A DNA stretch of 64,000 bases from Paenibacillus urinalis. GTDB lineage: Bacteria > Bacillota > Bacilli > Paenibacillales > Paenibacillaceae. The stretch is from positions 4,595,001 through 4,659,000 of the forward strand of contig NZ_CP118108.1 of the NCBI RefSeq assembly GCF_028747985.1, in the 5' to 3' direction. A program made the translations under genes and the position numbers. Each line of letters begins with the position of its first letter. The first letter of the stretch is position 1. This document shows, piece after piece, positions 2,171 through 46,809 of this stretch. Under the pieces are notes generated by a model. It was not told the origin of the DNA. It searched no databases and saw nothing but the letters and a program-made list of their open reading frames with translations.

Positions 2171-2227
2171 CGCATGTAAGGCCAGCAATTCAGGGAATCT
2201 TTAATGAAATTCTAATAAAACAAGTGA

Positions 2228-4307: not shown

Positions 4308-4344
4308 GACACCTTACTTCTCAAGTAACGAAAAGTAAAGTGTC
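4308..4344 (-). terminator. Terminator downstream of mgtC-like gene
   Basis: The inverted repeat GACACCTTACTT / AAGTAAAGTGTC has T-rich flanks on both strands. It lies 10 nt past the stop of the MgtC-family gene. Confidence 0.8.
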
Positions 4345-4354
4345 AAAAATTTGT

Positions 4355-5068: not shown

Positions 5069-5100
5069 TTGCATCTCTCCTTCCGTCAATCCTGTCTGAA

Positions 5101-5574
5101 TTAAGAACGATCGTACATCCTATTCAAATGGAACGTCGTTAATTCCACATTCGGCGCAATCTCACAGCTCTGTACCGGCTCGAAGCCATACTTTTGATAC
5201 AGCATTACAGCAGGTGTATTCTTCATGCCTGTCGACACAATAAATTTACGCACTTCTGAATACTGATCCAGCACATGCTGAATAAGCTGACCGGCAACAC
5301 CTCTTCGAAAATGATTCGGATGAACCATCATTCTTGAGATCGTCAGGCTGTCTTCCCATTCCTGCTCCACCGAAATCGCCCCGATAAGCTCCATATCTTC
5401 ATTTATATACCCATAAAACGTCTCTCCGCATTCCTGAAGACTGTCAATGGTATCAAGCAGTGGTGGAATGTCATGAAAGCCGATCAGCTCGGCCTCCAAG
5501 CGATACGCCATCTGCTGCAGTTTCCATACTTCCAGCATCAGGTCCCTGTCTTGCAAAGAAATATTTAGTATCAT
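5101..5574 (-). CDS. GNAT-family N-acetyltransferase
   Basis: 157 residues with the GNAT acetyl-CoA fold. The core motif is MVHPNHFRRGVAGQLIQHV (about 93-111), where RRGVAG is the pyrophosphate-binding loop, and MLYQKYGFEPV is a typical strand-helix end. The acceptor cannot be told from sequence. The upstream RBS (TTAGGG) is modest. The gene lies between the gatB terminator and mgtC on the same strand, so it probably begins a two-gene unit. Confidence 0.85.
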   Translation of the reverse strand: MILNISLQDRDLMLEVWKLQQMAYRLEAELIGFHDIPPLLDTIDSLQECGETFYGYINEDMELIGAISVEQEWEDSLTISRMMVHPNHFRRGVAGQLIQHVLDQYSEVRKFIVSTGMKNTPAVMLYQKYGFEPVQSCEIAPNVELTTFHLNRMYDRS

Positions 5575-5597
5575 TTCCCTAACCAGCCCCCTAATTC

Positions 5598-5628
5598 AAA
5601 AAGAAGCCCGCCGCAATGGACGAGCTTC
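5598..5628 (-). terminator. Terminator of the gatCAB operon
   Basis: On the minus strand GAAGCTCGTC pairs with GGCGGGCTTC (10 pairs including G-U), closes a 6-nt loop and is followed by TTTTT. It lies 37 nt after the gatB stop. Confidence 0.85.
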
Positions 5629-5664
5629 CGTGTTCAACGATCTTAAATCTATACTTAAAGGATA

Positions 5665-7104: not shown

Positions 7105-7134
7105 GATTCATTCTCCCTCTCTTTCCTTTAGGCC

Positions 7135-8592
7135 CTATAGCTGTGGCTGCTGTTTGTGATATTCCGTATGCTGCTCAAATGCATGGGCAACACGAAGAAC
7201 GGTCGCTTCATCAAAAGCCTTGCCGATAATTTGCATTCCGACAGGCATTCCATCAGCAAAACCGCAAGGAATGCTAATCGCAGGCACACCTGCAAGGCTG
7301 ACAGGAATCGTAAGGATATCGTTCAGATACATCGTCAGCGGATTGTCTACTTGAGAACCGAGCTTGAATGCTGTCGTAGGCGCTGTTGGTCCAATAATGA
7401 CATCATAGTTCTTAAACACTTCGTCAAAATCATTCTTAATCAGCGTGCGGACTTTTTGAGCCTTCAAGTAATAGGCATCATAATAGCCTGAGCTGAGTGC
7501 GTATGTCCCGAGCATAATCCGGCGTTTCACTTCACTGCCGAAGCCCTCACTGCGGGATTTATGATACAGATCAAGCAAATTGTCAGGGTTGTCGGCACGA
7601 ACGCCATAACGAACGCCATCAAATCTGGCAAGATTAGAAGATGCTTCAGAGGAAGCTAGCAAGTAATAGCTGGCTACAGCATACTCTGTATGCGGAAGAG
7701 ATACCTCTTCCCAAGTTGCTCCAAGTCCTTCGAGGACTTTAAGCGCAGACATTACCGTCTCTTTCACGGAAGGATCTACGCCTTCGCCGATATATTCCTT
7801 AGGAACCCCGATCCGCAGACCTTTCACATCTCCGGTTAAGCTGCTCAGAAAATCAGGAACTTCGACATTGGCTGATGTCGAATCCATGGAATCATATCCG
7901 GATATCGCTTGAAGCACATAAGCAGAATCCTCGACATTCTTCGTAACCGGACCGATCTGATCGAGGGAAGAAGCAAATGCAACTAAGCCGAAACGGGAAA
8001 CACGACCATAAGTCGGTTTCAAACCGACTACGCCGCAATAAGAGGCAGGCTGGCGAATCGAACCGCCCGTGTCGGAGCCGAGTGTGAAGTAGGCTTCTCC
8101 TGCTGCCACTGCCGCAGCTGAACCCCCGCTGGAGCCCCCGGGCACCCGATCCAGATCCCATGGATTACGCACCGGATAGAAGCTTGAGTTCTCGTTCGAG
8201 CCGCCCATCGCAAACTCGTCCATGTTCAGCTTGCCAAGTGTTACGATATCCGCTGCCTTCAGCTTCTTAACGACAGTCGCATCATAAACGGGAGTAAAGT
8301 TCGATAGGAACTGACTTGCACAGGTTGTACGAAGTCCCTCTGTCGAAATATTGTCCTTGATTCCTGCAGGCAGGCCAAATAGGAGTCCGCGGGCTTCGCC
8401 TGATACAAGCTTGTCATCCAGCCTTCTTGCAGCCTCCATTGCTCCTTCCTCATCAAGGGTGAGATACGCACGTACCTGCTCCTCAACTTGTCCTATTCTT
8501 GCATAAGATGCTGCAGTCAGCTCGGAAACCGAGATCTCTTTGGCATGCAGCTTATTATGTATCTCAGGTAGTGTAAGTTTAAGCAAACTCAA
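7135..8592 (-). CDS. gatA: Aspartyl/glutamyl-tRNA amidotransferase subunit A
   Basis: 485-residue amidase-signature protein. The catalytic triad of the family falls at Lys79 (in GLPAGIKDN), Ser154 (in [15 protein letters not shown]) and Ser178 (in [12 protein letters not shown]), the numbering known for bacterial GatA. It hydrolyses glutamine and channels ammonia to GatB. It lies between gatC (26 nt gap) and gatB. Many Gram-positives lack GlnRS, so the complex is likely essential here. Confidence 0.97.
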
Positions 8593-8618
8593 GATTATTA
8601 ACCTCCCTAAAAAATAGC

Positions 8619-8906
8619 TTATTCAAGTACAGCCGGCACTCTGATCTGGCCATCTTCCTCATCAGGCGCGTTCAGCATTACTTTTTCAATCGGCAGGCTC
8701 TCCCGAACCTCATCTTCACGCATTACATTCGATACATGAAGCACGTGCGTAGTTGGTTCCACACCTTCTGTATCAAGCTCGTTCAGCTTCTCTGCATATT
8801 GTAAAATGGCATTCAGCTGCTCCGTCATCTGCGCTTCTTCTGCCTCGCTGAGATTAAGACGGGCCAGCTTGGCCACATGCTGCACATCCTGCTTCGTAAT
8901 ACTCAT
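8619..8906 (-). CDS. gatC: Aspartyl/glutamyl-tRNA amidotransferase subunit C
   Basis: A 95-residue GatC with the typical start [19 protein letters not shown] and the [12 protein letters not shown] segment that wraps around GatA. It stabilises the GatA-GatB complex. A GAGGGAGG RBS precedes the ATG at 8906. It is the first gene of the operon; I see no T-box or other leader in the 130 nt upstream. Confidence 0.96.
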
Positions 8907-9040
8907 GCCTTCAAATCCTCCCTCTAAAAATACCTATACTAGTCATATTGTGTCCATTTTAACACGTCCATGCGGTGAATCAAATGAAAATACAAGTGTT
9001 ACCCGATTATACCCAATACGCCTATCAATTCCAAGAATAC

Positions 9041-9064
9041 AAAAAAGAGCCGGCAAATGCCGAC
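9041..9064 (-). terminator. Terminator after the IDEAL-domain gene
   Basis: On the minus strand GTCGGC-ATTT-GCCGGC is followed by TCTTTTTT, 10 nt past the stop of the gene ending at 9074. Confidence 0.85.
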
Positions 9065-9073
9065 CCTTATCAT

Positions 9074-9457
9074 TCAAATCCACGCACGAAGATTGACTTG
9101 TTTTATAAAATCTGCTGTTGACATCGGTTCGCTTGCGGCCTCTTCCTCTTCCACGAGTTCCACTTTGTCGCCATTCATAAGCTGACGAAACAGTCTTTCG
9201 TTATGTGTCGCCAGAGCGTAATCAATCAGAGCTTCCCGCTCGACTCGCTCCGCCTCCTGCCTCAAGATCAAAGCTTCCGGCTCGACATCGCCGGTAGGTA
9301 CGAAATAATTGCGGTTTACCTGAGGTACACGAATCACATAGTCAAAAGCGTTATCCGGGTTCCGGTCATATGCGATCACATAACCATACTCCCCTACAGG
9401 AAGATTCTGCTCAAAGGCGTCCGCGACGATGATAATTTTCTCCCCTAATTGTAGCAT
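9074..9457 (-). CDS. IDEAL-domain protein of unknown function
   Basis: 127 residues. The N-terminal half (about 1-65) is a small beta-rich domain. The C-terminal part contains LIDYALATHNERLFRQLMN (about 87-105), which resembles the IDEAL motif of short Firmicute proteins, followed by an acidic stretch EEEEAASEP. IDEAL segments are thought to mediate protein interactions; no activity is known. GGAGGTAGACG directly precedes the ATG. It stands alone between terminators. The motif call is from memory and would need a profile search. Confidence 0.55.
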   Translation of the reverse strand: MLQLGEKIIIVADAFEQNLPVGEYGYVIAYDRNPDNAFDYVIRVPQVNRNYFVPTGDVEPEALILRQEAERVEREALIDYALATHNERLFRQLMNGDKVELVEEEEAASEPMSTADFIKQVNLRAWI

Positions 9458-9548
9458 CGTCTACCTCCTGATTGTTATTGTCTGTCTAGTCTACTAAAAA
9501 TAAAGAATGCTGTCTATGGAAAGAATGGGCTGAAAATGCACACAAAAT

Positions 9549-9586
9549 AAAAAGAACGCAAACCGGGACTCGTCCGCAGTCTGCGT
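9549..9586 (-). terminator. Terminator after the MBL-fold hydrolase gene
   Basis: On the minus strand ACGCAGAC pairs with GTTTGCGT and encloses a second helix GGAC-GA-GTCC. TCTTTTTATTTT follows. It sits about 100 nt beyond the stop at 9687. Confidence 0.75.
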
Positions 9587-9686
9587 GCTTTGCAAAGTTA
9601 GTGGGTGTTTCAATAAAGATAATTGTAACCAATAATAAAAAATTTGTCTATATATTTTGAAGCATTTATCGACAGGATGTCCCAAA

Positions 9687-10322
9687 TTAACGTCCAGGAC
9701 GAACATAAGGATTATTTTGTTTCTCAAAACCAATCGTCGTCCTTGGGCCGTGGCCTGGATACACCTTAACATCATCTTCCAATGTATAAAGTGTATTCTG
9801 GATGGAGTGAATCAGGTCCCGCTCGCTTCCGCCTGGCAGATCGGTTCTTCCTACGCCGGCTCTGAACAGAACATCACCAGCAAACAGATCCTTACCGCAT
9901 AAGAGACTCACGCTTCCTGGTGAATGCCCAGGTGTATGATACACGTGAAAGGTCTGTCCTACAAGCTCCAGCTTCATACCCGCTGCAAGATCATATTCCG
10001 CCGGACTCGCCGTAATCTCTCCGCCAAGCTCCGGCCAGCGCAGTGAACCGTTCCACTTTGCCGACGTAAGCCATTCGGCCTCAGCGGTATGCACATATAC
10101 CGGACAGCCTTTCAGCTTGCGTATCTCCTCGACACCGCCAATATGATCAAAATGAGCATGGGTCAATATAATAGCCTCAATCTCCAAATCTTCGATTGCT
10201 CTGATCAGAGAAGCCGGATTCATCCCCGGGTCAATGATAAAAGCCTTGCCGCTGTCTTCTCCCTGCACCAAATAGGCATTGGTTTGCAGGGGACCTAGAC
10301 TGAAAGTTCGTATGTTCAGCAT
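9687..10322 (-). CDS. MBL-fold metallo-hydrolase, glyoxalase II-like
   Basis: 211 residues with the full metal-binding set of the metallo-beta-lactamase fold: HAHFDHIGG (about 55-63), the later His in HTPGHSPGS, Asp in LFAGDVLF and His in VYPGHGPRT. Size and the final NPYVRPGR match the YqgX/GloB-like group that hydrolyses thioesters such as S-lactoyl thiols; the substrate is not proven. The ATG starts 1 nt after the stop of the thioredoxin-like gene, so the two form a translationally coupled pair. Confidence 0.9.
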   Translation of the reverse strand: MLNIRTFSLGPLQTNAYLVQGEDSGKAFIIDPGMNPASLIRAIEDLEIEAIILTHAHFDHIGGVEEIRKLKGCPVYVHTAEAEWLTSAKWNGSLRWPELGGEITASPAEYDLAAGMKLELVGQTFHVYHTPGHSPGSVSLLCGKDLFAGDVLFRAGVGRTDLPGGSERDLIHSIQNTLYTLEDDVKVYPGHGPRTTIGFEKQNNPYVRPGR

Positions 10323-10323
10323 T

Positions 10324-10890
10324 CTAAAAACCGGATATCAACTCATGCAGCTCCTTGACGATGACTGCTTGATATTCCGTTCCCTCCCCATAACGTCGTT
10401 TAATCTCCTGACGCGTCTCTGCCAGATTATTTTGATAATCCGCAGCCTCGCGGTCTGGATTATTCTCCTTGAAGGTAACCATTGCCTCCTGGACATGCTC
10501 AGGACGTGGGCCCCAGGTTCCCAGAACAGCACCGCCCGAGTCTGTAAAAATAACGACTGGAATCGAACGTCCACCCATGGTCAGGAACTGATCCATGATC
10601 TCCAGATGGTGCTCCATAATGAGCATGTCTACCGGCATATCCGTCGTTTCCAATGCCCGGAGCACGACAGGAATATTTCGAACGACATCACCGCACCAAT
10701 CTGCAGCGATAATGACTGCTCGCAGGTCATCACGGTATTTCAAGCTGTCAAAGAAGGATTTATCTTCTTCGTTCGTCCACTCGAAACGGTTATACCAATC
10801 TAGAAAAGCTTCTTTATTCTGTGTCATACCCTCTATAAATTCTTGGGGGGACAATCCTTTACCGAACTTGTGTGATAAATTAGGAGCCAT
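10324..10890 (-). CDS. Thioredoxin-like protein (Thioredoxin_9 type)
   Basis: A 188-residue thioredoxin-fold protein. The active-site loop reads ADWCGDVVRN, with one Cys where classical thioredoxins have CxxC, followed by a cis-Pro region RSIPVVIF. Single-Cys WCGD loops are usual in the Thioredoxin_9 family, whose members are unlikely to act as simple dithiol reductants. The frame extends upstream to 11019, but GGAAAGGAAG lies 8 nt before the ATG at 10890, so I start there. It is cotranscribed with the hydrolase that begins 1 nt downstream. Confidence 0.8.
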   Translation of the reverse strand: MAPNLSHKFGKGLSPQEFIEGMTQNKEAFLDWYNRFEWTNEEDKSFFDSLKYRDDLRAVIIAADWCGDVVRNIPVVLRALETTDMPVDMLIMEHHLEIMDQFLTMGGRSIPVVIFTDSGGAVLGTWGPRPEHVQEAMVTFKENNPDREAADYQNNLAETRQEIKRRYGEGTEYQAVIVKELHELISGF

Positions 10891-11181
10891 GAAAAGCACT
10901 TCCTTTCCCGTATTAGCATGATTTGAATTATTGATTACATATAAACTAATTCGGCTCTTAACAAACAGCAGCTGCCAGGAATGATAGGAAAACAAGGTCA
11001 AGCTGTTATCCTGCATCACAACGTTGCCTCTTATTGCAGCTCCATCTTCAATAATAGCTGATTTTTCGGCTGGGAGAAAGTCTACCGGAATCCGCAGCTA
11101 TGCCCTGTGCTTGAGAATGGTCAAAAGTGTATCCGCCCTTCCCTCATCCGCATATGGTACCTAAAGAGGAGGTCGATCAGC

Positions 11182-11523
11182 ATGAAAGAGCATTCCCGCT
11201 ACGGCAAGCAGACAGCCCCATTCTCCAAGGGACCGGCACCCAAGCTTCCGTCCGCAAGAAAAATAAGACGTGCCTGCAGCAAGGAGCTGTACCGGACTGT
11301 AAAACGGATGAAGCTGTATATTGCCCCGGATTTAGTATCGCAAGGAGAGGACCTGTATTACCGCAAGGTCATCGCAAACCTGCTCTGGGTTACAGAGCAT
11401 CAGGATAATCGCAAAGCCCAGTGCGACTGGTGGGACACCGAGGTGCTTCCCGAGCTGTCCGAGCTGTGGAACGTGCCTGCTGCCAAGCTGTCCAGCGCCT
11501 TCCGAGACGCTTACGGCGGTTAG
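11182..11523 (+). CDS. Conserved hypothetical small protein
   Basis: 113 residues beginning MKEHSRYGKQ. It is basic at the N-terminus (LPSARKIRRACSKELYRTVKR), and the C-terminal half is Trp-rich (DWWDTEVLPELSELWNV) and ends FRDAYGG. I recall similar short proteins in Paenibacillus genomes, sometimes labelled dehydrogenase without support. I know no activity, and there is no signal peptide or membrane segment. The ATG at 11182 has AGGAGG 9 nt upstream; the longer frame from 11107 has no RBS. Confidence 0.65.
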   Translation: MKEHSRYGKQTAPFSKGPAPKLPSARKIRRACSKELYRTVKRMKLYIAPDLVSQGEDLYYRKVIANLLWVTEHQDNRKAQCDWWDTEVLPELSELWNVPAAKLSSAFRDAYGG

Positions 11524-11635
11524 AACTTATGTAGAGCGGCCCAGACTATGCCAATTTCTTCTCTCCATCCGCTAGGCTCAACAAACAAGATACCCGCCCG
11601 GTACAAAATAGCGATGCAAGATGTTCGGCTAGTGA

Positions 11636-13066
11636 CTACAAGCGCTCCACCGGCAGCTTCCAGGCTGCGATTAATACAAGCAGCATCCAAAATAAAGGAT
11701 AGCTGAAGTCGAAATCGACTGCGCCATGAAGCATGACAATCAAGCACACGGGAATGGTCTCCCGACTATGACGTAACAGCAGGCGCAGGATGTAAGCGAA
11801 TAGGAGCAGCATGAGCATAAGCCCCATGACACCGGTATCGAGGAATAGATCCAGATATCCGCTGTGCACTTCTGTGCCAATATACGGTGAGGATTGGACC
11901 GTATATACCGCATGCTTCCATGCGTCCCCGCCATGCCCAAGCCAAGGGGAGCGCACACCATATAGCACCGCATCACGCCACATCGCCTCCCTCGCAAACC
12001 AAGTTGCGCCGGAGGTGATTCTGCTGATGGCGGTATGGTACACCAGCCCCGCTGCACCCGTCAGTGCAGCAAGGGCCACGCACGCGGCAGCCACGCGGTG
12101 TCCGCGTGCCAGCAGGGCATGGAGCAGCAGCGCGAATACGAGCGCTGCGATCTCGCCCCCGGCCAGCAGCATGAGGCCGGGGAGTGGAGCCGGCGCGAGT
12201 GCAGCGCCGGCAAGGGCGTGATGTGCGAGCGCGGCGCATAAGAGCGGCGGCGCACTCGCACAGAGCAGCGGCAGGCGCCTGCCTTGCCGCTGAAGCAGGA
12301 GCAGTGCGAGTGCGCTCAGCAGCAGCGCGAGCCATGCTCCGCGCGACTCGCTGATGAGGAGCGCGGTCGCAGCTGGGAACAGGCCGAGGGCCGTTTCTGC
12401 CACCTTCCTCAGCTCGCCTGCCGGGGAGCTGGAGCATGCCGAAGCGGCTGAAGCCAGCCGCTCCAAGAAGAACATCCCGACCAGCACGCCGTACGCGTTA
12501 GGGTATTCGACCAAGCCCGCAAGTCTGGCACCATAGGCACTCAGCAGAGGATCATCCGTCCGCATTACTGCATTAGGAAGGACAAGCAGACCGCATACGG
12601 CCAGTAATCCGCTTAGCGTCATCAGCCAGCCCATCAGCTGAAAGCCTGCAGAGATCCACTTTTTTCCTCTTATAGAATGTCCAAGAATACAGCAGCCTGC
12701 GGCGAACACACTAATGACAAAAAATTGCATGAGGCTGTCTCTTGTTCCATTGAGGCTTACCGGATTTCCAAAGAGCAGGTGCCACGCATAGATCAATGCG
12801 ATGAGCAGCGGTATCAAAACAAGGGGTGTATGATTGTACATTATTTTTGCTGAATTTGAAGACGTATTAATGGTGAACAGCCACAATCCAAGCAGCACAG
12901 CCGGGAACCAGACGCTGATCCCTTCCCATGTGAAAGAGAAGAACAACCCCTGATGCAGACAAGCATACACGAGCACTGCCGTAACGAGCAGTCCGATTGA
13001 ATCTAAGGCATGAATGGCCAACCCTTTATCCGATTTGCTCGTTCGTATTGAATCTGTATGCTGCAT
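11636..13066 (-). CDS. O-antigen ligase/polymerase-like membrane protein
   Basis: 476 residues, about a dozen hydrophobic helices. The segment LLISESRGAWLALLLSALALL is the hallmark of the Wzy_C/O-antigen ligase family. The periplasmic-loop-like stretch with LGHGGDAWKHAVYT and HSGYLDLFLDTGVMGL also fits. In Gram-positives such proteins polymerise or transfer surface glycans; the substrate is unknown. The middle third (coding roughly 12060-12440) is very rich in G+C and in Ala and Leu, unlike its flanks. It lies alone, not in a visible polysaccharide cluster. The RBS is weak but the ATG is reasonable. Confidence 0.75.
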   Translation of the reverse strand: MQHTDSIRTSKSDKGLAIHALDSIGLLVTAVLVYACLHQGLFFSFTWEGISVWFPAVLLGLWLFTINTSSNSAKIMYNHTPLVLIPLLIALIYAWHLLFGNPVSLNGTRDSLMQFFVISVFAAGCCILGHSIRGKKWISAGFQLMGWLMTLSGLLAVCGLLVLPNAVMRTDDPLLSAYGARLAGLVEYPNAYGVLVGMFFLERLASAASACSSSPAGELRKVAETALGLFPAATALLISESRGAWLALLLSALALLLLQRQGRRLPLLCASAPPLLCAALAHHALAGAALAPAPLPGLMLLAGGEIAALVFALLLHALLARGHRVAAACVALAALTGAAGLVYHTAISRITSGATWFAREAMWRDAVLYGVRSPWLGHGGDAWKHAVYTVQSSPYIGTEVHSGYLDLFLDTGVMGLMLMLLLFAYILRLLLRHSRETIPVCLIVMLHGAVDFDFSYPLFWMLLVLIAAWKLPVERL

Positions 13067-13134
13067 TTAAGGAAGCTCCCTTTTCTACTAGAATTCATTC
13101 ACTGGAATGTTCTCCTATTACTATTGCCTAACCC

Positions 13135-13160
13135 AAAAAAGCCCAACCCTTCCGGGCTGG
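13135..13160 (-). terminator. Terminator after the methyltransferase gene
   Basis: On the minus strand CCAGCCC-GGAA-GGGTTGG forms a 7-bp stem with a GNRA loop, followed by GCTTTTTT, 60 nt after the stop at 13220. Confidence 0.85.
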
Positions 13161-13219
13161 ACTTTTGAAACATATGGCAGGTAGGTTGTGAGATTACAAT
13201 TGGAGAGGACAAGATCCCC

Positions 13220-14425
13220 TTACTTTGCTGCTCCCACCGGTAACCGATCTGCGCATGCTCTTTCCAAGTAAGGATTAACATGCAAGAAATCACGATATGC
13301 CGTATACTCATTCCACAACTGATCTGTATCTCCAGCATTTCCCTTTACAGCGCGAATCAGAATATTCTTGGGTGTATGCTCCATATCGATGAATTCCAGC
13401 AGCTGTGTACGGTAGCCCATAATATCAAGCAGCTTGGCACGAATGGCATCTGTAGCAAGGGCAGCAAACCGTTCCTTGAGAATCCCGTGTGATAATAAAG
13501 GATTCATGACATTTGCCTCCATCTGAGCAAACAGCTCATGCTGACAGCACGGAACTGATAATATTACGGATGCGCCCCAGCGCACCGCCTTCTCAAGAGC
13601 AGCATCTGTTGCTGTATCGCAGGCATGAAGTGTAACGACCATATCCACCTGTTCAAGCTCATTGTATTCTGCAATGTCCCCTACCAGAAATTTCAGCCCA
13701 GTATAGCCCAGATTCTTGCCGATTTGGCTGCAATGCTCGATCACATCTGCCTTCAAATCCAGACCTACGACCTGAAGCTTCCTGCGCTGCTGCACAGCCA
13801 AGTAATGGTATAGAGCAAAGGTAAGATACGATTTGCCACAGCCAAAATCGACAATCGTAATCGGTCGTCCCTGCGGCAAATTAGGCAGTACATCCTCCAC
13901 CATTTCAAGGAAGCGATTGATCTGCTTGAACTTATCATATTTACGGGCATGCACCTTGCCTTCATCGCTCATAATACCGAGCTCAATCAGGAAGGGAATC
14001 GGCTTGCCGTCCTCTAGCACATAACGTTTCTTCCGATTATGAGACAAATCCGCCTCCTGCTTGGAGGGAGTTTTGGTCAAGATCGACACTTTGTACTTCT
14101 TGCTGATCAAGATCTGATAGTCGGCTTCAGGAGTACAAATCATGCCTTGCCGAAAAGTCTCCTCAAATAATTGCTTCATCCGCTCAGCAGCTTCATCCGG
14201 GATCAAATTATCGTGAGTTACTTTATTGTTCTGATGGTATGCAAATTGGTAATGGAGTTTGTTTTTAAGCAGAACCGGCTTAACCTGCACTTTAGTGAAG
14301 GTCTGTCCTTCTTTCTTGCGAAGCTGACTTAGTGTAGCCGTAATCAGTCCCTGCTCTTCAAAAATACCTTCAATTAATTTTCGTAATGAATCCAAAGGGT
14401 ACATCTCACTTTCTATGGTTAACAT
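13220..14425 (-). CDS. Class I SAM-dependent methyltransferase (Methyltransf_32-like)
   Basis: 401 residues. SAM motif I is ITIVDFGCGKSYLTFALYHYL (about 191-211), and later TLHACDTATDAAL and VILSVPCCQHEL match the Methyltransf_32 group, which includes RNA-modifying enzymes. The N-terminal 150 residues form a separate domain that probably binds substrate. The conserved CC in VPCCQHE is typical of the family. Substrate unknown; RNA is the best guess. No strong RBS is seen before the ATG at 14425, and Met8 is possible. Confidence 0.8.
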   Translation of the reverse strand: MLTIESEMYPLDSLRKLIEGIFEEQGLITATLSQLRKKEGQTFTKVQVKPVLLKNKLHYQFAYHQNNKVTHDNLIPDEAAERMKQLFEETFRQGMICTPEADYQILISKKYKVSILTKTPSKQEADLSHNRKKRYVLEDGKPIPFLIELGIMSDEGKVHARKYDKFKQINRFLEMVEDVLPNLPQGRPITIVDFGCGKSYLTFALYHYLAVQQRRKLQVVGLDLKADVIEHCSQIGKNLGYTGLKFLVGDIAEYNELEQVDMVVTLHACDTATDAALEKAVRWGASVILSVPCCQHELFAQMEANVMNPLLSHGILKERFAALATDAIRAKLLDIMGYRTQLLEFIDMEHTPKNILIRAVKGNAGDTDQLWNEYTAYRDFLHVNPYLERACADRLPVGAAK

Positions 14426-14510
14426 TGTTCTTTGAGTAACAATAACATATCAGAACACATTGTCCAGCTCAGCTTGTCTTATAAAGCCAGCACCGGCAGG
14501 TCTATCCTAC

Positions 14511-15152
14511 TTATCTGCCCTGCAATTCCCGAAGTCCTTCCTCCACTTCTGTGCGAGGCAGACCTCCCGCTTCAAGCTGTACATCCTCTTGCAGCAGCAG
14601 ACGCTTGTAGAACTCAGCCGCCTCCTGTGCATATTGCTCCTGCCTGCTCAAGCGATACCAGCTGTTCTCCGCCTCGTCATATCGTCCCGCTTTCTCGTGA
14701 TATAACGCCTTTAGTCTTTCCGTCTTCTCAGGCAGCTCATACCCTTTAATTTCCTCCAGCAATGCCGCAACGCGTTCAGGTGCACTTAAGATCTCTCTGT
14801 TTGCCCCATGAAGCAGGCTATATAAATATAAATGCAGAGCTTTCATCCAGCGGACAAGTGCTTGATCAGTCGACCCTTGATCCATGTACACTCGGCCTTC
14901 CTCTTCCATAATTCGTGCCACTTGCTGGACCTTGTCTACTTCCACACCGTCACCAAGCCGGAACAAATCGATGATATCTTCAACCGGAAGAGAGTTCAGC
15001 AGCTGAGAATTAAGCCGGAACTGGCGTTTAAGCCACTCATCCAGCTCCCATAAGGCATCAATATGCATTTTCTTCTGCTTCAGCTCAAACACTTTACCGA
15101 TCATTTCCGTCATTTCCTCCACCATGCGGAGGAGATAATCTCTTCTAAACAT
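14511..15152 (-). CDS. DUF6483-like helical protein
   Basis: 213 residues, almost entirely helical, with TPR-like pairs: FYKRLLLQEDV, ALYHEKAGRYDEAENSWYRL and the Gln-rich middle. The opening MFRRDYLLRMVEEMTEMI matches my recollection of the DUF6483 family of Firmicutes, for which no function is known. It has no signal peptide. It lies between the methyltransferase and hydrolase genes, 85 nt from the former, and may be separately transcribed. Confidence 0.6.
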   Translation of the reverse strand: MFRRDYLLRMVEEMTEMIGKVFELKQKKMHIDALWELDEWLKRQFRLNSQLLNSLPVEDIIDLFRLGDGVEVDKVQQVARIMEEEGRVYMDQGSTDQALVRWMKALHLYLYSLLHGANREILSAPERVAALLEEIKGYELPEKTERLKALYHEKAGRYDEAENSWYRLSRQEQYAQEAAEFYKRLLLQEDVQLEAGGLPRTEVEEGLRELQGR

Positions 15153-15342
15153 CAGCGTCTCTTCTCCTTTGGCCGTCTGTCCGAAGCACGGAGCGGCTTA
15201 TCCGTGAGTTCTGAGCGTTCCAGCACTCCATTTAAATTGTACCCGGAATATAAGGAAAAAGCCAAACATGAAAGACTTTGTTGTAAGAAGCTGATTGTAA
15301 AATATGAGGCTCTTTGATTCCACGAAACTGTGCAAGCAATAT

Positions 15343-15377
15343 AAAAAGCAGGCCCGGATAATTACCCCAAGCCTGCT
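15343..15377 (-). terminator. Terminator after the alpha/beta hydrolase gene
   Basis: The arms AGCAGGC and GCCTGCT flank a 17-nt loop, with TTTTT on the minus-strand 3' side. It lies 28 nt after the stop at 15405. Confidence 0.8.
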
Positions 15378-15404
15378 GTCTAACCATTTATATAGATACA
15401 GCAC

Positions 15405-16196
15405 TTATTTTACATTATTATTCATAAAGCTGGTAAGCGCACGAAGGAATTCATCCGGCTGCTCAACCATACTCATATGACCAGCATCTGTGATAAGCGA
15501 CTGCGTTACTCTCGGGCTGTCTGAAGTAAAGGTCCGATCCGGCGGCACAACGGCATCCTGTTCTCCCGCTATTAACAGCACGGGAACACTCGCTTCATCC
15601 AGCACATGCCGCAGGTCAGGACGTTCCTTCATGGCGATGGCCGTATTGGATGCTCCCTGAGGAGAAGTCCGATAACCAATCTCCCGGACTCGATCTATCT
15701 TGGATACCATCGTCGTCTGGTGCTCTGCTGCAAACAGATTAGGAACCAAAGCATCCACAAAGGGTTGAATCCCTTCCGTTTGAATAGTGGACACTGCTCT
15801 GAGACGCTTTTCTTTGGCCTCGTCACTGTCTGGATAAGCCGTTGAATGGATTAAGCCAAAGGCATTAAGCCGATCAGGATATCTGTCTGCAATAGATAGT
15901 GTGAGGTATCCTCCTAAGGAATGGCCGAAAACACTAGCTTGCTGAATACCCAAATGATTGAGCAGCTCCACGATATCATCTGCCATATCGCTAATACTGC
16001 AGCTGTTGTTAGGCGTCCCCGATTCCCCATGACCTCTGAGATCCGGTACGATACAGCGATATTGCTTCACTAATTGAGGCAATACCTCTTCAAAGTAGTC
16101 AGAGCTTCCGCAATAACCATGCAGCAATACCACCGGTTGTCCTTCTCCATGATCTCTATAAGCGATAACATGATTTCCTAATTGTACTTTTTCCAT
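15405..16196 (-). CDS. Alpha/beta-fold hydrolase
   Basis: A 263-residue alpha/beta hydrolase. The oxyanion region is VVLLHGYCGSS, the nucleophile is Ser93 in FGHSLGGY, the acid lies near AGEQDAVVP and the His in DAGHMSMVEQPDEF. LRGHGES is also typical. It is probably an esterase or lactonase acting in the cytoplasm; the substrate cannot be told. The frame extends to 16319, but AGAGGG lies 7 nt before the ATG at 16196. It follows yyaC by 19 nt on the same strand. Confidence 0.88.
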   Translation of the reverse strand: MEKVQLGNHVIAYRDHGEGQPVVLLHGYCGSSDYFEEVLPQLVKQYRCIVPDLRGHGESGTPNNSCSISDMADDIVELLNHLGIQQASVFGHSLGGYLTLSIADRYPDRLNAFGLIHSTAYPDSDEAKEKRLRAVSTIQTEGIQPFVDALVPNLFAAEHQTTMVSKIDRVREIGYRTSPQGASNTAIAMKERPDLRHVLDEASVPVLLIAGEQDAVVPPDRTFTSDSPRVTQSLITDAGHMSMVEQPDEFLRALTSFMNNNVK

Positions 16197-16215
16197 TACA
16201 TTCGCCCTCTTTCTG

Positions 16216-16815
16216 TTAGCATGGATCATGAAATCCAGTATTACATACATTAAGCAATTCAGACTCTGCTGAACCAGTTTGCAATTGAAATCCCTCATGA
16301 GCAGCCAACGCAAGCTCACGCGCCATATTCATTACCCGATGTAGAGAAGTCATCTGAAGCAGCGTATACGGCTTGGGGCCATTCACGTTAACAATACCGG
16401 CAATGCTGTAATGACCGACAGCAGGCAGGTCTCCTTTTACCGATTCAGCAGGTACCAGTGAACGCTCCCGGCAGAGGTAATCACCAACGTCAACTGCAGA
16501 GCCCAGGCAAGCATCAATCGCAATGACTACATGGTCAGCGGGAATTGTGCGGATCATTTGCTTCAATGTTGCAGCATCACAGGGGTTCGGCAGCGTACCC
16601 ATCACGTGCTGAAATCCGTACTCTACTAAATAGCTTCCGGTAAGCGGACCCAATGCATCACCTGTGGAACGATCTGTTCCGATACATACAAAGGTTAATT
16701 TATCTATAGAATGGTGCGCTGCAATCTGTTTGAAGAATGAAGCAAGAGCTCCTTTTCCACTTCTTTTGTGACCAGAGGCTGTTGTCCTGGATGTTGTCGA
16801 TGTGAATTTGGACAA
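16216..16815 (-). CDS. yyaC: Sporulation protein YyaC (DUF1256, GPR-like fold)
   Basis: 199 residues. FVCIGTDRSTGDALGPLTGS (about 45-64), AIDACLGS and VGHYSIAGIVN are the conserved blocks of YyaC. The family is related to the spore protease GPR and is conserved in endospore formers; its target is not established. A TTG at 16815 with AGGAGG 11 nt upstream is the likely start. The first 30 residues are low-complexity and Ser/Thr-rich, longer than in Bacillus. Its presence supports a spore-forming host. Confidence 0.9.
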   Translation of the reverse strand: MSKFTSTTSRTTASGHKRSGKGALASFFKQIAAHHSIDKLTFVCIGTDRSTGDALGPLTGSYLVEYGFQHVMGTLPNPCDAATLKQMIRTIPADHVVIAIDACLGSAVDVGDYLCRERSLVPAESVKGDLPAVGHYSIAGIVNVNGPKPYTLLQMTSLHRVMNMARELALAAHEGFQLQTGSAESELLNVCNTGFHDPC

Positions 16816-16916
16816 GGGTTCACGAACCTCCTCTTTATCTCTTTATCTTTCTATCCTGATGCTTACATGATACAATACGAACAAACTTTAATGAAGTCGA
16901 AAGGAATGGACGGAAC

Positions 16917-33930: not shown

Positions 33931-34806
33931 CTAGATCCGCGTTTCTTCCGGCTCCACATGCACATGCACATGCATTATATTGTGATGTCTCCGCATGTTC
34001 TCTTCAATCGTATCACTGATGTGATGCCCTTCGACAATACTTAGATCCCTTGCCACCTCAACAACGACATCGACCATGACATGACTGCCGTACAGCCTTG
34101 CTTTGACATCCTTGATGCCCTGCACACCAGGCGTTTTGGCGACCGTAGTTCGCAAATCATGCAGCTGATCCTCATCAAAGCCGTCGGTTAGACTATGCGT
34201 CGATTCTCTAAAGATATCCCAGGCTGTCTTACAAATGAGAAGACCTACAATAAATGCAGCAACGGTATCCATCCAAGGCAAACCGAACTGGGCTCCAATT
34301 ATACCAATAGCAGCCCCCACACTGACGAATGCATCAGAGAGATTATCTTTGGCTGCAGCCATTAACGCCTGACTTCTGATCTGGCGGGCTAATTTGCGAT
34401 TATACAAATATACTCCAATCATAACTACGGCAGCCACTCCTGCAACGAGAGCTGACCAAATATCAGGGATCTCCTTCGTTCCTTCAAAAAGTGAAGTTCC
34501 CGCATCAATGAGCACCTGAATCCCGACCATCGCCATAATAAATGAAGCCACCAGTGCTGCCACCGTTTCCGCCCGGAAATGCCCGTACGCATGATCTGAA
34601 TCAGGCGGCTTCCGTGAAATCCTCAGCCCGATAAGGACGGCTATCGAAGCAACAATGTCTGTCAGATTATTAAAGCCGTCTGCTTTTAGAGCACTTGAAT
34701 TAAAAGCAAAACCGCAAATAAGCTTAAAGGCTGACAGAACGAGATAGGCAGCGATGCTGATCCATGCCCCGCGCTCCCCTTTTTTTATATCATCATAAGC
34801 ATTCAA
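33931..34806 (-). CDS. CDF-family cation efflux transporter
   Basis: 291 residues with about six helices. Metal-site residues are in HADGFNNLTD-type form as SALKADGFNNLTDIVAS and in MAAAKDNLSDAFVS; DSDHAYGHFRAETV marks the loop. The cytoplasmic C-terminal domain ends with HHNIMHVHVHVEPEE, a His-rich tail that may bind metal. Resembles MntE/MneP-type manganese exporters, though zinc or iron are possible. The start is a TTG at 34806 with AAGGAG 11 nt upstream; the longer frame to 34836 lacks an RBS. Confidence 0.88.
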   Translation of the reverse strand: MNAYDDIKKGERGAWISIAAYLVLSAFKLICGFAFNSSALKADGFNNLTDIVASIAVLIGLRISRKPPDSDHAYGHFRAETVAALVASFIMAMVGIQVLIDAGTSLFEGTKEIPDIWSALVAGVAAVVMIGVYLYNRKLARQIRSQALMAAAKDNLSDAFVSVGAAIGIIGAQFGLPWMDTVAAFIVGLLICKTAWDIFRESTHSLTDGFDEDQLHDLRTTVAKTPGVQGIKDVKARLYGSHVMVDVVVEVARDLSIVEGHHISDTIEENMRRHHNIMHVHVHVEPEETRI

Positions 34807-34913
34807 CCGAAACGACACTCCTTTTTTGAAGCACACAAATATATTTCATAGGCACGTGCAAGCTTGAACAATCGTTTTACCATGTTACCAAATGGGTACC
34901 GTGTGGGTCTATA

Positions 34914-34985
34914 GAAACAATGTTGCCGGGTCACATTGCTGTAGACAAGATGAAACAGTGTTGCTTGGCGGCATCGCTATGAGTC
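34914..34985. repeat. Degenerate 33/34-bp direct repeat
   Basis: Two copies, 34914-34946 and 34952-34985, both beginning GAAACARTGTTGC and ending in a GAC/GTC-type box, about three quarters identical. They lie in the long gap between the CDF gene and the 41-bp repeats. No coding frame covers them. Confidence 0.6.
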
Positions 34986-35090
34986 TAAACAAACTTTTTT
35001 GTATGGGGGAAAAACCGGTTGATATTCTAGATTATACTCTAATCTATTCTTGCCCTTGTTTGGAGATTTAAAAACGGATAAAATTAGGTT

Positions 35091-35336
35091 GAAATGTTAA
35101 GTATGTTTACTCTACATTTCAACCGGGTAGTGAAATGTTACGTATGTTTACTCTACATTTCAACCGGGTAGTGAAATGTTAAGTATGTATACCCTACATT
35201 TCAACCGGGTAGTGAAATGTTAAGTATGTATACCCTACATTTCAACCGGGTAGTGAAATGTTAAGTATGTATACCCTACATTTCAACCGGGTAGTGAAAT
35301 GTTACGTATGTATACTCAACATTTCAACCGGGTAGT
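35091..35336. repeat. Six tandem 41-bp repeats, each an imperfect palindrome
   Basis: Units start at 35091, 35132, 35173, 35214, 35255 and 35296, without spacers. Each has arms GAAATGTT / AACATTTC-like and an inner GTATGTATAC palindrome (GTATGTTTAC in the first two), then ACCGGGTAGT. Unit 6 shows CAAC where others have CTAC, improving the arm pairing. The array ends 27 nt before a small gene start, and lies just upstream of its RBS. It is not a CRISPR. Confidence 0.9.
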
Positions 35337-35363
35337 GATTACGAAAGAGGAGGTATGTATCTC

Positions 35364-35549
35364 ATGAGCGAAAATAACGAGCCTCGTAAAATTAGTCTGG
35401 CTGATGCAGTCAAGCAAAAGCTCGCCCAGAAAAAAGAGCAGAACAACGGGAATCGCGGCGGCGGCTTCCAAAATAATGGAACGAAGAAATTAGTCAGCCA
35501 AAACAACAAAAAGCCGAATAATCAGCGTCGTCGTACTGGCGGGTCTTAA
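35364..35549 (+). CDS. Small basic low-complexity protein
   Basis: 61 residues starting MSENNEPRKISLADAVKQK. After a short helix the chain is rich in Asn, Gln, Lys, Arg and Gly (NNGNRGGGFQNNG, NNKKPNNQRRRTGGS), suggesting an unfolded nucleic-acid-binding tail, an inference only. AGGAGG lies 10 nt before the ATG at 35364; the ATG at 35355 is too close to it. The array of six 41-bp repeats is directly upstream and may control it. A strong terminator follows. Confidence 0.6.
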   Translation: MSENNEPRKISLADAVKQKLAQKKEQNNGNRGGGFQNNGTKKLVSQNNKKPNNQRRRTGGS

Positions 35550-35592
35550 TATTGGTTATCCTCCAATTCCTAAACTGCCGGCGGCAAAACAT

Positions 35593-35653
35593 AAAAAGTC
35601 CGTATTCCGGATGAATTGGTAACAATTCAATCCATGGAATACGGACTTTTTTT
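35593..35653. terminator. Strong bidirectional terminator
   Basis: The stem AAAAAGTCCGTATTCC / GGAATACGGACTTTTT encloses GAATTG-GTAA-CAATTC. It separates the small protein gene from the convergent ABC-F gene. Confidence 0.92.
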
Positions 35654-35659
35654 ATGATG

Positions 35660-37285
35660 TTAGGCTTCTACTGGATACATTTTAGCACGCAGCTGCTTCA
35701 CTTCATCATTCTCAAGGTATTCATCATAGCTCATTTGACGATCAATCACACCTGTTGGCGTAATTTCAATAATACGGTTAGCGATGGTTTGAATGAACTG
35801 ATGGTCATGGGATGTGAACAGAATCGTTGCATCCGTATCAATCAGACCATTGTTCAGTGCCGTGATGGATTCGAGATCCAAGTGGTTCGTAGGCTCATCC
35901 AGAATAAGCACATTCGCACCGTTCAGCATCATCTTGGCAAGCATACAGCGGACTTTTTCTCCACCTGACAGCACGCTTGCTTTCTTGAGTGCTTCTTCTC
36001 CAGAGAACAGCATACGTCCAAGGAATCCACGCAGGAAAGTTTCTTCCTGATCCTTGGAATACTGGCGCAGCCATTCAACCAGGTTCATATCGACACCTTC
36101 AAAATATTTGGAGTTGTCTTTCGGGAAGTACGCCTGCGAGGTCGTAACACCCCAAGTATATTCCCCGGAATCAGCTTCTGTTTCACCCATCAGCACTTCA
36201 AACAGGGTTGATTTCGGCAATCCGTTAGGTCCAACAAAGGCAATCTTGTCGCCCTTATTCACCACGATACTGAGATCGTTAAGAACTTGCTCGCCTTCAA
36301 CAGATTTGCTCAGACGATCAATCGTCAGAAGCTGTTTACCTGCTTCACGCTCAGGCTTGAAGTTGATGAACGGATATTTCCGATTCGATGGACGAATATC
36401 GTCCAACTGAATTTTTTCAAGCTGCTTCTTACGGGAAGTCGCCTGTTTGGACTTGGATGCATTGGCAGAGAAGCGCTGAATGAACGCTTGAAGTTCTTTC
36501 ATCTTCTCTTCTTTTTTCTTATTCGCATCACGCTGCAGGGCAAGCGCCAGCTGACTGGATTCATACCAGAAATCATAGTTACCTACATACAGCTGAATTT
36601 TGCCAAAATCAATATCTGCAATATGCGTACATACTTTGTTCAGGAAGTGACGGTCATGGGATACCACGATAACTGTACCTTCATAATCCATCAAGAAGTT
36701 CTCCAGCCATTGGATGGATTCCAGATCCAGATAGTTGGTAGGCTCATCGAGCAGCAAATTGTTCGGGTTTCCGAACAAAGCTTGCGCCAAGAGAACACGT
36801 ACCTTCTCATTGCCGCTCAGTTCGGCCATTTTTTGCTCGTGCATGTCACGAGGAATGCCAAGACCAATCAGAAGCGCTGCTGCATCCGGTTCCGCGTCCC
36901 AGCCGTTCAGCTCCGCGAATTCGCCTTCGAGTTCACCTGCACGCAGACCATCCTCTTCGGTAAAGTCAGATTTGGCATAAAGGGTGTCTTTTTCCTTCAT
37001 AATTTCATACAAACGAGTGTGGCCCATAATCACTGTCTCAAGTACCGGATACTCATCGTATTCATAATGGTTCTGTTTCAGAACGGCCATCCGCTCACCT
37101 GGTGTCATGTGCACTTCACCTTGGTTTGCTTCAATTTCACCGGACAAAATTTTCAAAAACGTTGATTTCCCTGCTCCGTTAGCCCCGATAAGGCCGTAGC
37201 AGTTCCCTGGGGTAAACTTGATGTTCACATCTTCAAATAATGGGCGTTTACCGTAGCGGAGCGTTATGCCGCTTGTACTGATCAT
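35660..37285 (-). CDS. ABC-F family ATPase (YkpA/YbiT-like)
   Basis: 541 residues, two ABC domains, no membrane segment. Domain 1 has a normal Walker A (GANGAGKS, 34-41), LSGNE signature and Walker B LLLDEPTN. Domain 2 has GPNGLPKST (352-360), in which Pro replaces the Gly of the P-loop, then LSGGEKVR and LILDEPTN. A Lys/Arg-rich linker (255-300) joins them. YkpA-group proteins act on the ribosome; degenerate second P-loops occur in this group as I recall it. Terminates at the bidirectional hairpin. Confidence 0.9.
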   Translation of the reverse strand: MISTSGITLRYGKRPLFEDVNIKFTPGNCYGLIGANGAGKSTFLKILSGEIEANQGEVHMTPGERMAVLKQNHYEYDEYPVLETVIMGHTRLYEIMKEKDTLYAKSDFTEEDGLRAGELEGEFAELNGWDAEPDAAALLIGLGIPRDMHEQKMAELSGNEKVRVLLAQALFGNPNNLLLDEPTNYLDLESIQWLENFLMDYEGTVIVVSHDRHFLNKVCTHIADIDFGKIQLYVGNYDFWYESSQLALALQRDANKKKEEKMKELQAFIQRFSANASKSKQATSRKKQLEKIQLDDIRPSNRKYPFINFKPEREAGKQLLTIDRLSKSVEGEQVLNDLSIVVNKGDKIAFVGPNGLPKSTLFEVLMGETEADSGEYTWGVTTSQAYFPKDNSKYFEGVDMNLVEWLRQYSKDQEETFLRGFLGRMLFSGEEALKKASVLSGGEKVRCMLAKMMLNGANVLILDEPTNHLDLESITALNNGLIDTDATILFTSHDHQFIQTIANRIIEITPTGVIDRQMSYDEYLENDEVKQLRAKMYPVEA

Positions 37286-44691: not shown

Positions 44692-46809
44692 CTAACGCAA
44701 AACCCCATTCTGCAATTTTTCTTTCAAATACTGCTGATTATAGAGCATGCTTGGATGCGTGGGATGATACCTGAGAGCCAGCTCATTATGGTAATTAGCC
44801 TGCCCATGGTTACCAAGACGGTCATAGCAGACACAGAGCTGCAGATGCGGAATCCATGTCCATGATGGCTCATCAATGTTCGCTAACGGATCTTGCGGCC
44901 GCTTCAGCGCTACAGCTGTCTCAAACCAATGAATGGCTGTATCCCACTCCGTACGCTCCGCAAACCAGGTGCCTATCCTGCAGCATACTTCTGCGCGCGG
45001 GATCGCATAGGTAAATGATCTGAACAAGGCTGCAAGCTCCTGCTCCTTCATCCCAAGCCTTCCCATACATTCGGCCAGCTTCAAGCACGCGGACAAATTA
45101 TCTTCAATCCAGCCGTGACCCGAATCGAGGAACCTCGTATACCATTGAACGGCTTCCTCATTTAAACCATGATCTCGAAGCTCATTCGCATAATAATACT
45201 GATCCCTTGCAGTAAATATCTCTCCCCGTTCTTCTAGTCTTTTGTATATCCGTAAATTACGGTCTGTATATTCTTTGTCTTTCTTGTGTGTTACTGCAAT
45301 GTTCGTATGGATAATGTTGCCCGAGACAGCCAAATATTCGTGCACAGCACCATGCCACTCAAAGCCCTTATCCCTTCGAACCAGCCGATTTCTTCTCAGC
45401 TTATGGCTTACATTGCCCGATCCATCAAAGGCCAGATGATATTCCATCGACAGTCCGTCAATGGACGAATCAAGCCGTTCCCTCCAATCTAGCAGCTGCT
45501 GCCGATCCTTCTCCTCAAACACATCATCCGCATCAAGCCATAAAATATATTCTCCTTCAGCCTGGCTGAAGGCAAAATTTCGGGCATCGGCAAAATGATC
45601 CTTCCACTCATAATCTACAATTCGGCAATCATATTCCTTCGCAATTTCACGAGTACGATCTGTTGAACCCGTATCCACAATGACGATTTCATCCGCAATC
45701 TCCCGCACTGAATCGAGACACCGTGCCAGCGATTTTTCCTCGTTCTTCACAATCATGCACAAACTAATGAGGATGTGCTTGCTTGCCTCTGTTCCCTCTA
45801 TCGTATGCCTAGAAGCTGATTGAAGAAAGGCTGCGACTCCGTCCAAATCCGAATCCCGATAAATATGATAAGCAGGGTAATGTGTATCCACGTGCAGCCG
45901 GATCCCCAGCGCCTGGGCTCTCACACAGAAGTGACGATCCTCGCCCCAAAGAGTAAGGTTATCGATCCGGGCAAAACGAACCCCCTTCTCAAGCGCAGAT
46001 CTGCGAATCAAAGTACAAGCTCCAAGCCCTCCTACCTCGTATCTTCCTTTCTTGCGCAGCTTCCTCATAAATTCCGCACTTCGTCTCTGCTTCTCTTCTT
46101 CCGTAATCTGCTCATTCCGTCTCTCTTCATATAATGTATATTCGTCTCTCAGCCATACCTGCGGCATCTCAATCGTTCCCGGCTGCCAGCGGGTCCAGAA
46201 GAGGTTTGCCACTATTTCCTCCTCCCCGTTCAAGAGCTGTGTCAACGTGGACGGATGAAGCACCAGATCGGAATCCAGCAAAAACAGAGCATCATAGCCT
46301 TCTTCTATTGCATACGATAGAATCCAATCCTTCAAGGCTGCTACCCGCCATATATATTCTTCAGGCCAATAATGGCCGTATTCATTTCGGGTGTAAACTG
46401 GACTAGAGTTCGGTTCTTCTGTCGGTGATGGATCTGCCATAGATGTCTTCAGAGCTTCTTCTGTATCTACTGCATTTGCTGCATTTACTGCATTTGCTGC
46501 ATTTACTGCATTTGCTGCGCTTTCTGCGTTTGCTGCTCCAGATCTGGTTCCCGCTCGGCTCCGTTTGATCCATGGTTTTTTTGGCTTTTCGATCACCGCA
46601 GCCTTTACTACTCTTCCTCCATGCTTTCGTACAAAGGCTTTCAGCTGCTTAGACGAGGCCTGAGCCTCATTATCATCAACAAATACATAGCTTACCTCGA
46701 TCTCTTCCTCCCGGATGGAGAGTGATGACAACGATTGTAGAAAGGCCTTTAACACATCTGGTGATTGACGCACTGGACTTGCGATCAGGATACGCTGCAG
46801 AGCTGTCAT
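44692..46809 (-). CDS. Large glycosyltransferase with two GT-A-like regions and TPR tail
   Basis: 705 residues. The N-terminal region (1-340) looks like a GT-A domain with the acid motif LFLLDSDLV (about 175-183), interrupted by an Asn/Ala-rich low-complexity segment (91-115). A second, classical GT2 domain starts with ISLCMIVKNEEKSLARCLDSV and has DTGSTDRT and LWLDADDVFEE. A TPR-like helical tail (560-705) follows. Acceptors are unknown; a surface glycan or protein is likely. It overlaps nothing but follows the 236-residue GT2 gene by 18 nt, so the two are probably an operon. Confidence 0.85.
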   Translation of the reverse strand: MTALQRILIASPVRQSPDVLKAFLQSLSSLSIREEEIEVSYVFVDDNEAQASSKQLKAFVRKHGGRVVKAAVIEKPKKPWIKRSRAGTRSGAANAESAANAVNAANAVNAANAVDTEEALKTSMADPSPTEEPNSSPVYTRNEYGHYWPEEYIWRVAALKDWILSYAIEEGYDALFLLDSDLVLHPSTLTQLLNGEEEIVANLFWTRWQPGTIEMPQVWLRDEYTLYEERRNEQITEEEKQRRSAEFMRKLRKKGRYEVGGLGACTLIRRSALEKGVRFARIDNLTLWGEDRHFCVRAQALGIRLHVDTHYPAYHIYRDSDLDGVAAFLQSASRHTIEGTEASKHILISLCMIVKNEEKSLARCLDSVREIADEIVIVDTGSTDRTREIAKEYDCRIVDYEWKDHFADARNFAFSQAEGEYILWLDADDVFEEKDRQQLLDWRERLDSSIDGLSMEYHLAFDGSGNVSHKLRRNRLVRRDKGFEWHGAVHEYLAVSGNIIHTNIAVTHKKDKEYTDRNLRIYKRLEERGEIFTARDQYYYANELRDHGLNEEAVQWYTRFLDSGHGWIEDNLSACLKLAECMGRLGMKEQELAALFRSFTYAIPRAEVCCRIGTWFAERTEWDTAIHWFETAVALKRPQDPLANIDEPSWTWIPHLQLCVCYDRLGNHGQANYHNELALRYHPTHPSMLYNQQYLKEKLQNGVLR
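46469..46518. repeat. 18-bp tandem repeat in the glycosyltransferase gene
   Basis: ACTGCATTTGCTGCATTT recurs nearly three times. It encodes the NAANAV repeats in residues 95-114. The unit keeps the frame, so copy-number change would alter length only. Confidence 0.75.

What the first reader, a model, noticed from the sequence alone, without database searches (positions are those of the whole stretch)
35091..35336. Six tandem 41-bp palindromic repeats before a small basic-protein gene
Six copies abut without spacers, each a hairpin-capable palindrome, and the period of 41 bp is close to four DNA turns. The array ends just before the RBS of a 61-residue Asn/Gln/Arg-rich protein gene. Unit 6 changes a base so that its arms pair better, which suggests selection on the symmetry. 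It could be an array of operators or a leader of stacked RNA hairpins.
Basis: partly seen in the sequence, partly recalled or inferred. Interest (0 to 1): 0.72.

Follow-up and report, generated by a model that had tools for sequence, protein, structure and literature searches.

The report
Tandem hairpin repeats in gene leader
In a small group of related Paenibacillus bacteria, one short palindromic DNA segment has multiplied head to tail between a gene's probable start signal and its coding part, most likely giving a row of hairpins in the messenger RNA of a small conserved protein of unknown function; it is a modest curiosity.

Summary
The array is real: six head-to-tail 41-bp units, 35090-35338. 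It lies between a comparatively conserved promoter block (TTGTTT-17-TAAAAT, 35056-35084) and the ribosome-binding site of a 61-aa basic-protein gene with relatives in 130 of 149 genomes. The predicted transcript start (about 35091, not measured) falls at the array's first bases, so the array would be nearly the whole 5' leader. The repeat is confined to this locus and one clade: 4 of 75 genus genomes, a fifth hit being a lone three-mismatch match elsewhere. Copy number fits the tree: six (window, nearest genome), four, at least three (run of unknown bases), one in the basal relative, none in the compared species outside. Both arms changed together between lineages, but template-switch mutation could do that without selection. 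No other exact sites were found in six genomes, against a regulon operator. Best reading: a leader hairpin amplified in place, acting, if at all, on mRNA stability. This is inferred; neutral expansion is the close rival.

The parts
35056..35084 (+). Probable promoter: TTGTTT, 17-bp spacer, TAAAAT
   Evidence: Corresponding pattern upstream of the small gene in 78 of 80 named loci (pattern shaped on these sequences); coordinates. Not listed by the generic sigma-70 scan.
35091..35091 (+). Predicted transcript start (seventh base after the -10 box; not measured)
   Evidence: Inference from promoter geometry
35090..35338 (+). Tandem array, 41-bp period, 6.1 copies; six full units 35090-35335
35090..35121 (+). 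Palindrome of unit 1; arms extend to 11 bp with GGT upstream and ACC downstream
35131..35162 (+). Palindrome of unit 2
35172..35203 (+). Palindrome of unit 3
35213..35244 (+). Palindrome of unit 4
35254..35285 (+). Palindrome of unit 5
35295..35326 (+). Palindrome of unit 6, nine-pair stem
35344..35354 (+). Ribosome-binding site AAAGAGGAGGT
   Evidence: Sequence
35364..35549 (+). Gene of the 61-aa basic protein, function unknown
   Evidence: Relatives in 130 of 149 genomes; 109 database proteins
35592..35652 (+). Terminator-like hairpin after the gene
   Evidence: MFE -34.7 kcal/mol, z -9.15 for 35585-35660; not listed by the simple terminator scan

Best explanation
The array is the transcribed 5' leader of a single-gene unit: promoter, array, ribosome-binding site, 61-aa gene, terminator. 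A single leader hairpin, still present once in the basal relative, was multiplied by replication slippage or unequal recombination, and its units exchange variants. In the mRNA the units fold as six hairpins or pair with one another as one or two long rods; in neither fold is the ribosome-binding site paired to the array. The most likely effect is at the RNA level: a structured 5' end that slows 5'-end-dependent decay, with copy number giving at most a graded change in expression. Shown: the array, its position, its clade and copy numbers. Inferred: the transcript start, folding in the cell, and any effect on the gene.
For: Promoter pattern upstream of the gene in 78 of 80 named loci, so that the array lies in predicted transcribed leader. 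Array at this locus only. Copy numbers 6, 6, 4, at least 3, then 1 in the basal relative, nested on a tree of 1.7 kb from the small gene on. With pair span limited to 45 nt, all six intra-unit hairpins have probability 0.998 or more. Pair 5 is A-T in the window and T-A in 453mf; pair 9 is T-A in some units and C-G in one. The array persists between genomes only 93.3% identical in the downstream 1.7 kb. 5' roadblocks stabilise downstream mRNA against RNase J1 in Bacillus subtilis, and a 5' stem-loop matters for aprE leader stability (PMC3997798: passages read; the aprE statement is a title in its reference list).
Against: No expression data. The transcript start is inferred, and the generic promoter scan does not list this promoter (its -35 is weak). 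35 of 78 orthologs with the promoter pattern have leaders of 32 nt or less with folds no stronger than -6.0 kcal/mol, so the gene does not need a leader hairpin; the nearest zero-copy species have 44-49 nt leaders at -4.6 to -5.3. Three of four units in one species carry a mismatch among the eight arm pairs, and pair 9 is a T-T mismatch in 14 of 18 units where it can be read. The fold z-score of -7.20 is expected of any tandem palindrome. Five bases of the ribosome-binding site are predicted to pair with bases just before the start codon, so the site is not simply open.
Confidence: 0.48

Rival explanations
1. Neutral expansion: a leader palindrome was multiplied by slippage, and template switching and exchange between units keep the arms and units alike. 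Copy number has little or no effect on the gene.
For: Copy number varies (6, 6, 4, at least 3, 1). The 8 differences between the window and nearest-genome arrays fall at columns that vary between units. One species keeps stem mismatches in three of four units. Orthologs do without any such leader. Template switching can create and maintain hairpins (PMC8794818, abstract).
Against: At least three copies are kept in all four array-bearing sequences (window and three relatives) over species-level divergence; in all of these the array stops short of promoter and ribosome-binding site. Long-term absence of contraction is not tested with population data.
Confidence: 0.36
2. Operator array: a dimeric DNA-binding protein binds each palindrome, about four helical turns apart, and represses or activates the small gene or the divergent cation efflux gene.
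For: Palindromic DNA units of 41 bp, 3.9 turns. Unit 1 has 11-bp arms reaching upstream of the predicted start, which an RNA reading does not need.
Against: No other exact site in six genomes; four other sites carry one mismatch and have unrelated centres. The arm sequence differs between species. One relative has one unit and the compared outside species none.
Confidence: 0.09
3. Autoregulation: the small basic protein binds its own leader hairpins and limits its own translation or mRNA life; more copies give more binding sites.
For: The protein is basic and Asn/Gln/Arg-rich, the array immediately precedes its gene.
Against: The protein is conserved where the hairpin is absent; no RNA-binding family is recognised.
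Confidence: 0.05

Closest known systems
5' stem-loop mRNA stabilisers of Bacillus (aprE leader; title in the reference list of PMC3997798)
   Same: Hairpin at or near the 5' end of a leader, followed by a strong ribosome-binding site
   Different: Here six tandem copies of one unit; no stability has been measured
Variable-number tandem repeats in bacterial leaders and promoters (class recalled, from no call)
   Same: Head-to-tail copies whose number differs between relatives, local to one gene
   Different: The unit is a 41-bp palindrome rather than a short simple repeat; no phase variation shown
Quasi-palindromes kept by template switching (PMC8794818, abstract; PMC7202029, listing)
   Same: Inverted repeats whose arms change together
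   Different: Here combined with tandem amplification
Dispersed REP/BIME-type palindromes (recalled, from no call)
   Same: Palindromic unit outside coding sequence
   Different: Not dispersed: this locus only in the genomes searched

Membership tests
5' mRNA stabiliser hairpin | Hairpin within a few bases of the transcript 5' end | tested here: inconclusive
   Unit 1 begins at 35090 and the predicted start is 35091; the start is not measured
5' mRNA stabiliser hairpin | Longer mRNA half-life because of the hairpin | not testable with these tools
   Needs RNA decay measurement
Variable-number tandem repeat locus | Head-to-tail copies whose number differs between relatives | tested here: met
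   6, 6, 4, at least 3, 1; variation within one species not tested beyond two genomes, both with six
Operator array of a regulon regulator | Same site near other genes of the genome | tested here: not met
   In six genomes no exact site off this locus; four one-mismatch sites with unrelated centres. A single-target operator is not excluded
Dispersed REP-like element | Many copies scattered over the genome | tested here: not met
Known structured RNA family of Rfam | Match at the family's gathering score | tested here: not met
   16 matches up to E 5 on 34000-36000, none at a gathering score

The most novel reading that the evidence does not exclude
The array is a copy-number rheostat: tandem duplication of a leader hairpin sets the lifetime or translation of the mRNA of a widely conserved small basic protein, so that expression is tuned in heritable steps by slippage, and the alternative folds (six hairpins or long rods) add a second layer of control.
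Probability: 0.12. Interest if true: 0.6.

Novelty: new variant of a known kind. Interest (0 to 1): 0.33.

Why it matters
If the leader hairpins act on the mRNA, close relatives offer a natural dose series (one, four, six copies) for how repeated 5' structure sets mRNA lifetime and translation in Gram-positive bacteria. It is also a clean case for asking how far paired changes in a stem show selection rather than template-switch mutation. The small protein itself, found in most genomes sampled from the order and without a known function, is probably the more important open question at this locus.

Tried and rejected
Rfam scan of 34000-36000: 16 matches up to E 5, none at a gathering score, taken as chance. 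Pfam for the small protein: two sub-threshold matches (CD99L2, E 0.00087, 20 bits against a cut-off of 34.4; DUF2767, E 0.18), rejected as compositional; NCBIfam: none up to E 1. Solved structures: one match at E 0.15, rejected.

The generic promoter scan of 34800-35700 found seven sites against 2.5 expected: one on the plus strand inside unit 1 and one on the minus strand in each of six units, i.e. one consensus match repeated by the array; not pursued. It did not list the promoter that I use, whose -35 box matches only three of six bases; I rely on comparison between species.

I first took the leaders of the nearest zero-copy species for a homologous hairpin (arms at the same place). Their left arm would lie mostly upstream of the predicted start and their leaders fold differently, so I do not claim it. 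Masking of the ribosome-binding site by the array is not predicted. Faster change of the array between the two nearest genomes (binomial P 0.0018) is not exceptional empirically: 6.4% of 249-base stretches have as many differences. In one search the units of two genomes were read one base out of register; one search replaces those tables.

Papers: searches found none; others gave listings. I read passages of PMC3997798 and the abstract and opening of PMC8794818; the other papers I saw only in listings. None of the listed papers was recognisably about this array, in one open-access library only.

Full report
What is there. By its relatives the window is Paenibacillus: of the 80 named loci kept, 77 are titled Paenibacillus, two Saccharibacillus and one Neobacillus mesonae. 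The nearest held genome, G001, shares 91% of sampled 31-letter words. Tandem Repeats Finder reports a 41-bp array of 6.1 copies at 35090-35338, 96% matches. Read from TGAAATGT, each unit has a left arm (8 nt), a 16-nt centre with a short inner stem, a right arm ACATTTCA, and a 9-nt linker ACCGGGTAG; six complete units cover 35090-35335. A unit pattern with up to three mismatches finds these six in the window and none in 100 shuffles.

Surroundings. Upstream and divergent is a cation efflux (CDF) gene (33931-34836, minus; Pfam Cation_efflux and ZT_dimer; the true start may lie further in). Downstream and convergent is an ATPase (35660-37285, minus; Pfam ABC_tran, two stretches, and ABC_tran_Xtn; 'ABC-F' is recalled). 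Between array and ATPase lies the small gene 35364-35549 (61 aa), followed by a terminator-like hairpin, which the simple terminator scan does not list. The protein has relatives in 130 of 149 genomes and 109 database proteins at E 0.001 or better. Where a source names these at all they are hypothetical or uncharacterised; a few carry DUF4023 or DUF5302 labels, which the Pfam scan of our protein does not support up to E 1. Function unknown.

Why the array is probably a leader. Of 80 named loci (the best 80 of 213), a promoter-like arrangement TTGYNN-17-TAN[AG]AT precedes the small gene in 78 (the two without are Saccharibacillus). The pattern was shaped on these sequences, so this is consistency rather than an independent test, but the block is visibly conserved. 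In the window it is TTGTTT-17-TAAAAT at 35056-35084. The generic sigma-70 scan does not list it. The seventh base after the -10 box is 35091, so unit 1 begins at the predicted start and the predicted leader is 273 nt. Among the 78, leaders so defined are 77 nt or less in 76; the two long ones, 191 and 376 nt (the latter with a run of unknown bases), are the two array-bearing relatives. 35 of 78 have leaders of 32 nt or less with energies no lower than -6.0 kcal/mol, so a leader hairpin is not a general need of this gene.

Distribution. In 75 held genomes of the genus the unit pattern with up to three mismatches matches in five; four are at this locus (six, four, one and one matches) and the fifth (G013) is a single three-mismatch match on a different contig from that genome's small gene. 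The 25-base inter-unit pattern hits 3 of 99 genomes, at this locus in each. The whole array as DNA query finds 2 of 59 genomes. The arms with free centre and one mismatch, in six genomes, hit this locus in four and otherwise four sites, each with one mismatch and an unrelated centre. Of 30 upstream regions run through Tandem Repeats Finder, two have the 41-bp array, a third has units around 240 unknown bases and a fourth one unit; one other (L028) has an unrelated 35-bp repeat. A tree of 1.7 kb from the small gene on, 13 sequences, nests window and G001 (6 copies each), then FSL H7-0326 (4), then 453mf (at least 3), then MER 107 (1; support 0.90), with zero-copy species outside. A very long-branch sequence (P. 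massiliensis, 45% identity) joins next to this group with support 0.45 and is probably misplaced. Identities to the window are 98.8, 95.3, 93.3 and 85.6%.

How it changes. Over 19 whole or partial units from the window and three genomes, variable columns are 1 of 8 in the left arm, 2 of 8 in the right, 6 of 16 in the centre and 5 of 9 in the linker; three of those five vary only in the last unit of 453mf, where the repeat runs out. Pair 5 is A-T in window and G001 but T-A in the two 453mf units that show it; pair 9 is T-T in 14 of 18 units, T-A in three and C-G in one. In FSL H7-0326 three of four units carry one mismatch among the eight arm pairs. Between window and G001, 8 of 249 array bases differ against 2.2 expected from the rest, all at columns that also vary between units, as exchange between units would give; no other base of 34837-35363 differs. 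This excess is not unique: 6.4% of 249-base stretches outside have as many. Units of FSL H7-0326 lie 1-3 changes from the closest window unit (8 of 164), less than the 12.8% of the upstream flank, though taking the closest of six lowers the figure; 453mf (14 of 101 against 10.6%) shows no such deficit.

Folding. The leader 35086-35370 folds at -102.5 kcal/mol, z -7.20 against shuffles, which any tandem palindrome would show. Unrestricted, units pair with each other, as one long rod or, starting at 35091, two. With span limited to 45 nt all six intra-unit hairpins form. Intra-unit hairpins (-7.1 to -10.9) are mostly more stable than inter-unit ones (-5.2, or -6.6 to -9.3 with flanks); unit 1 with three flanking bases each side reaches -17.8, but two or three of the upstream bases involved would precede the predicted start. 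In the fold and the pair probabilities the ribosome-binding site is not paired to the array; its last five bases (GAGGT) are about 80-90% paired, with bases just before the start codon.

Mechanism. The anatomy argues for a hairpin leader amplified in place. 5' roadblocks protect Bacillus mRNA from RNase J1 (PMC3997798, passages). Whether six copies do more than one is unknown. The neutral alternative is nearly as likely: slippage multiplies the unit and template switching can keep arms matched (PMC8794818, abstract). An operator array is disfavoured by the lack of other sites, although the long arms of unit 1 across the predicted start are a point for DNA binding; autoregulation by the small protein is possible but unsupported.

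Verdict. Of the interpretation, leader hairpins are supported by position, operators are not, and selection on symmetry is unproven. Ordinary in kind, unusual in its tidy expansion.

Noticed in passing
window 34900-34990: A conserved element (GTGTGGGTCTAyAGAAACAnTGTTGC ... CATTGCTGTAG, with a second similar module 38 bp on) lies between the divergent CDF gene and the small gene; GGGTCYANAGAAACA is present within 900 bases upstream of the small gene in 49 of 80 named loci. It is far more widespread than the array and matches no Rfam family at its gathering score; perhaps a regulatory site or leader of the CDF gene.
   Followed up: partly
window 1-16866 against 16867-64000: The first 16.9 kb are 99.988% identical to the nearest genome, the rest about 98.7%, which suggests recombination between close strains.
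   Followed up: no
window 46468-46536: A 9-bp repeat CTGCATTTG, 7.4 copies, possibly inside a minus-strand coding region (sequence; frame not checked).
   Followed up: no
window 35364-35549: The 61-aa protein has relatives in 130 of 149 genomes and, in the seven relatives read, a conserved C-terminus (KPNNQRRRTGGS, or KPNNQRKRTGV in Peribacillus); no family or function is assigned.
   Followed up: partly
L045 (Paenibacillus sp. 453mf): The record has a run of 240 unknown bases inside the array, so copy number there is only bounded; short-read assemblies may hide such arrays.
   Followed up: no
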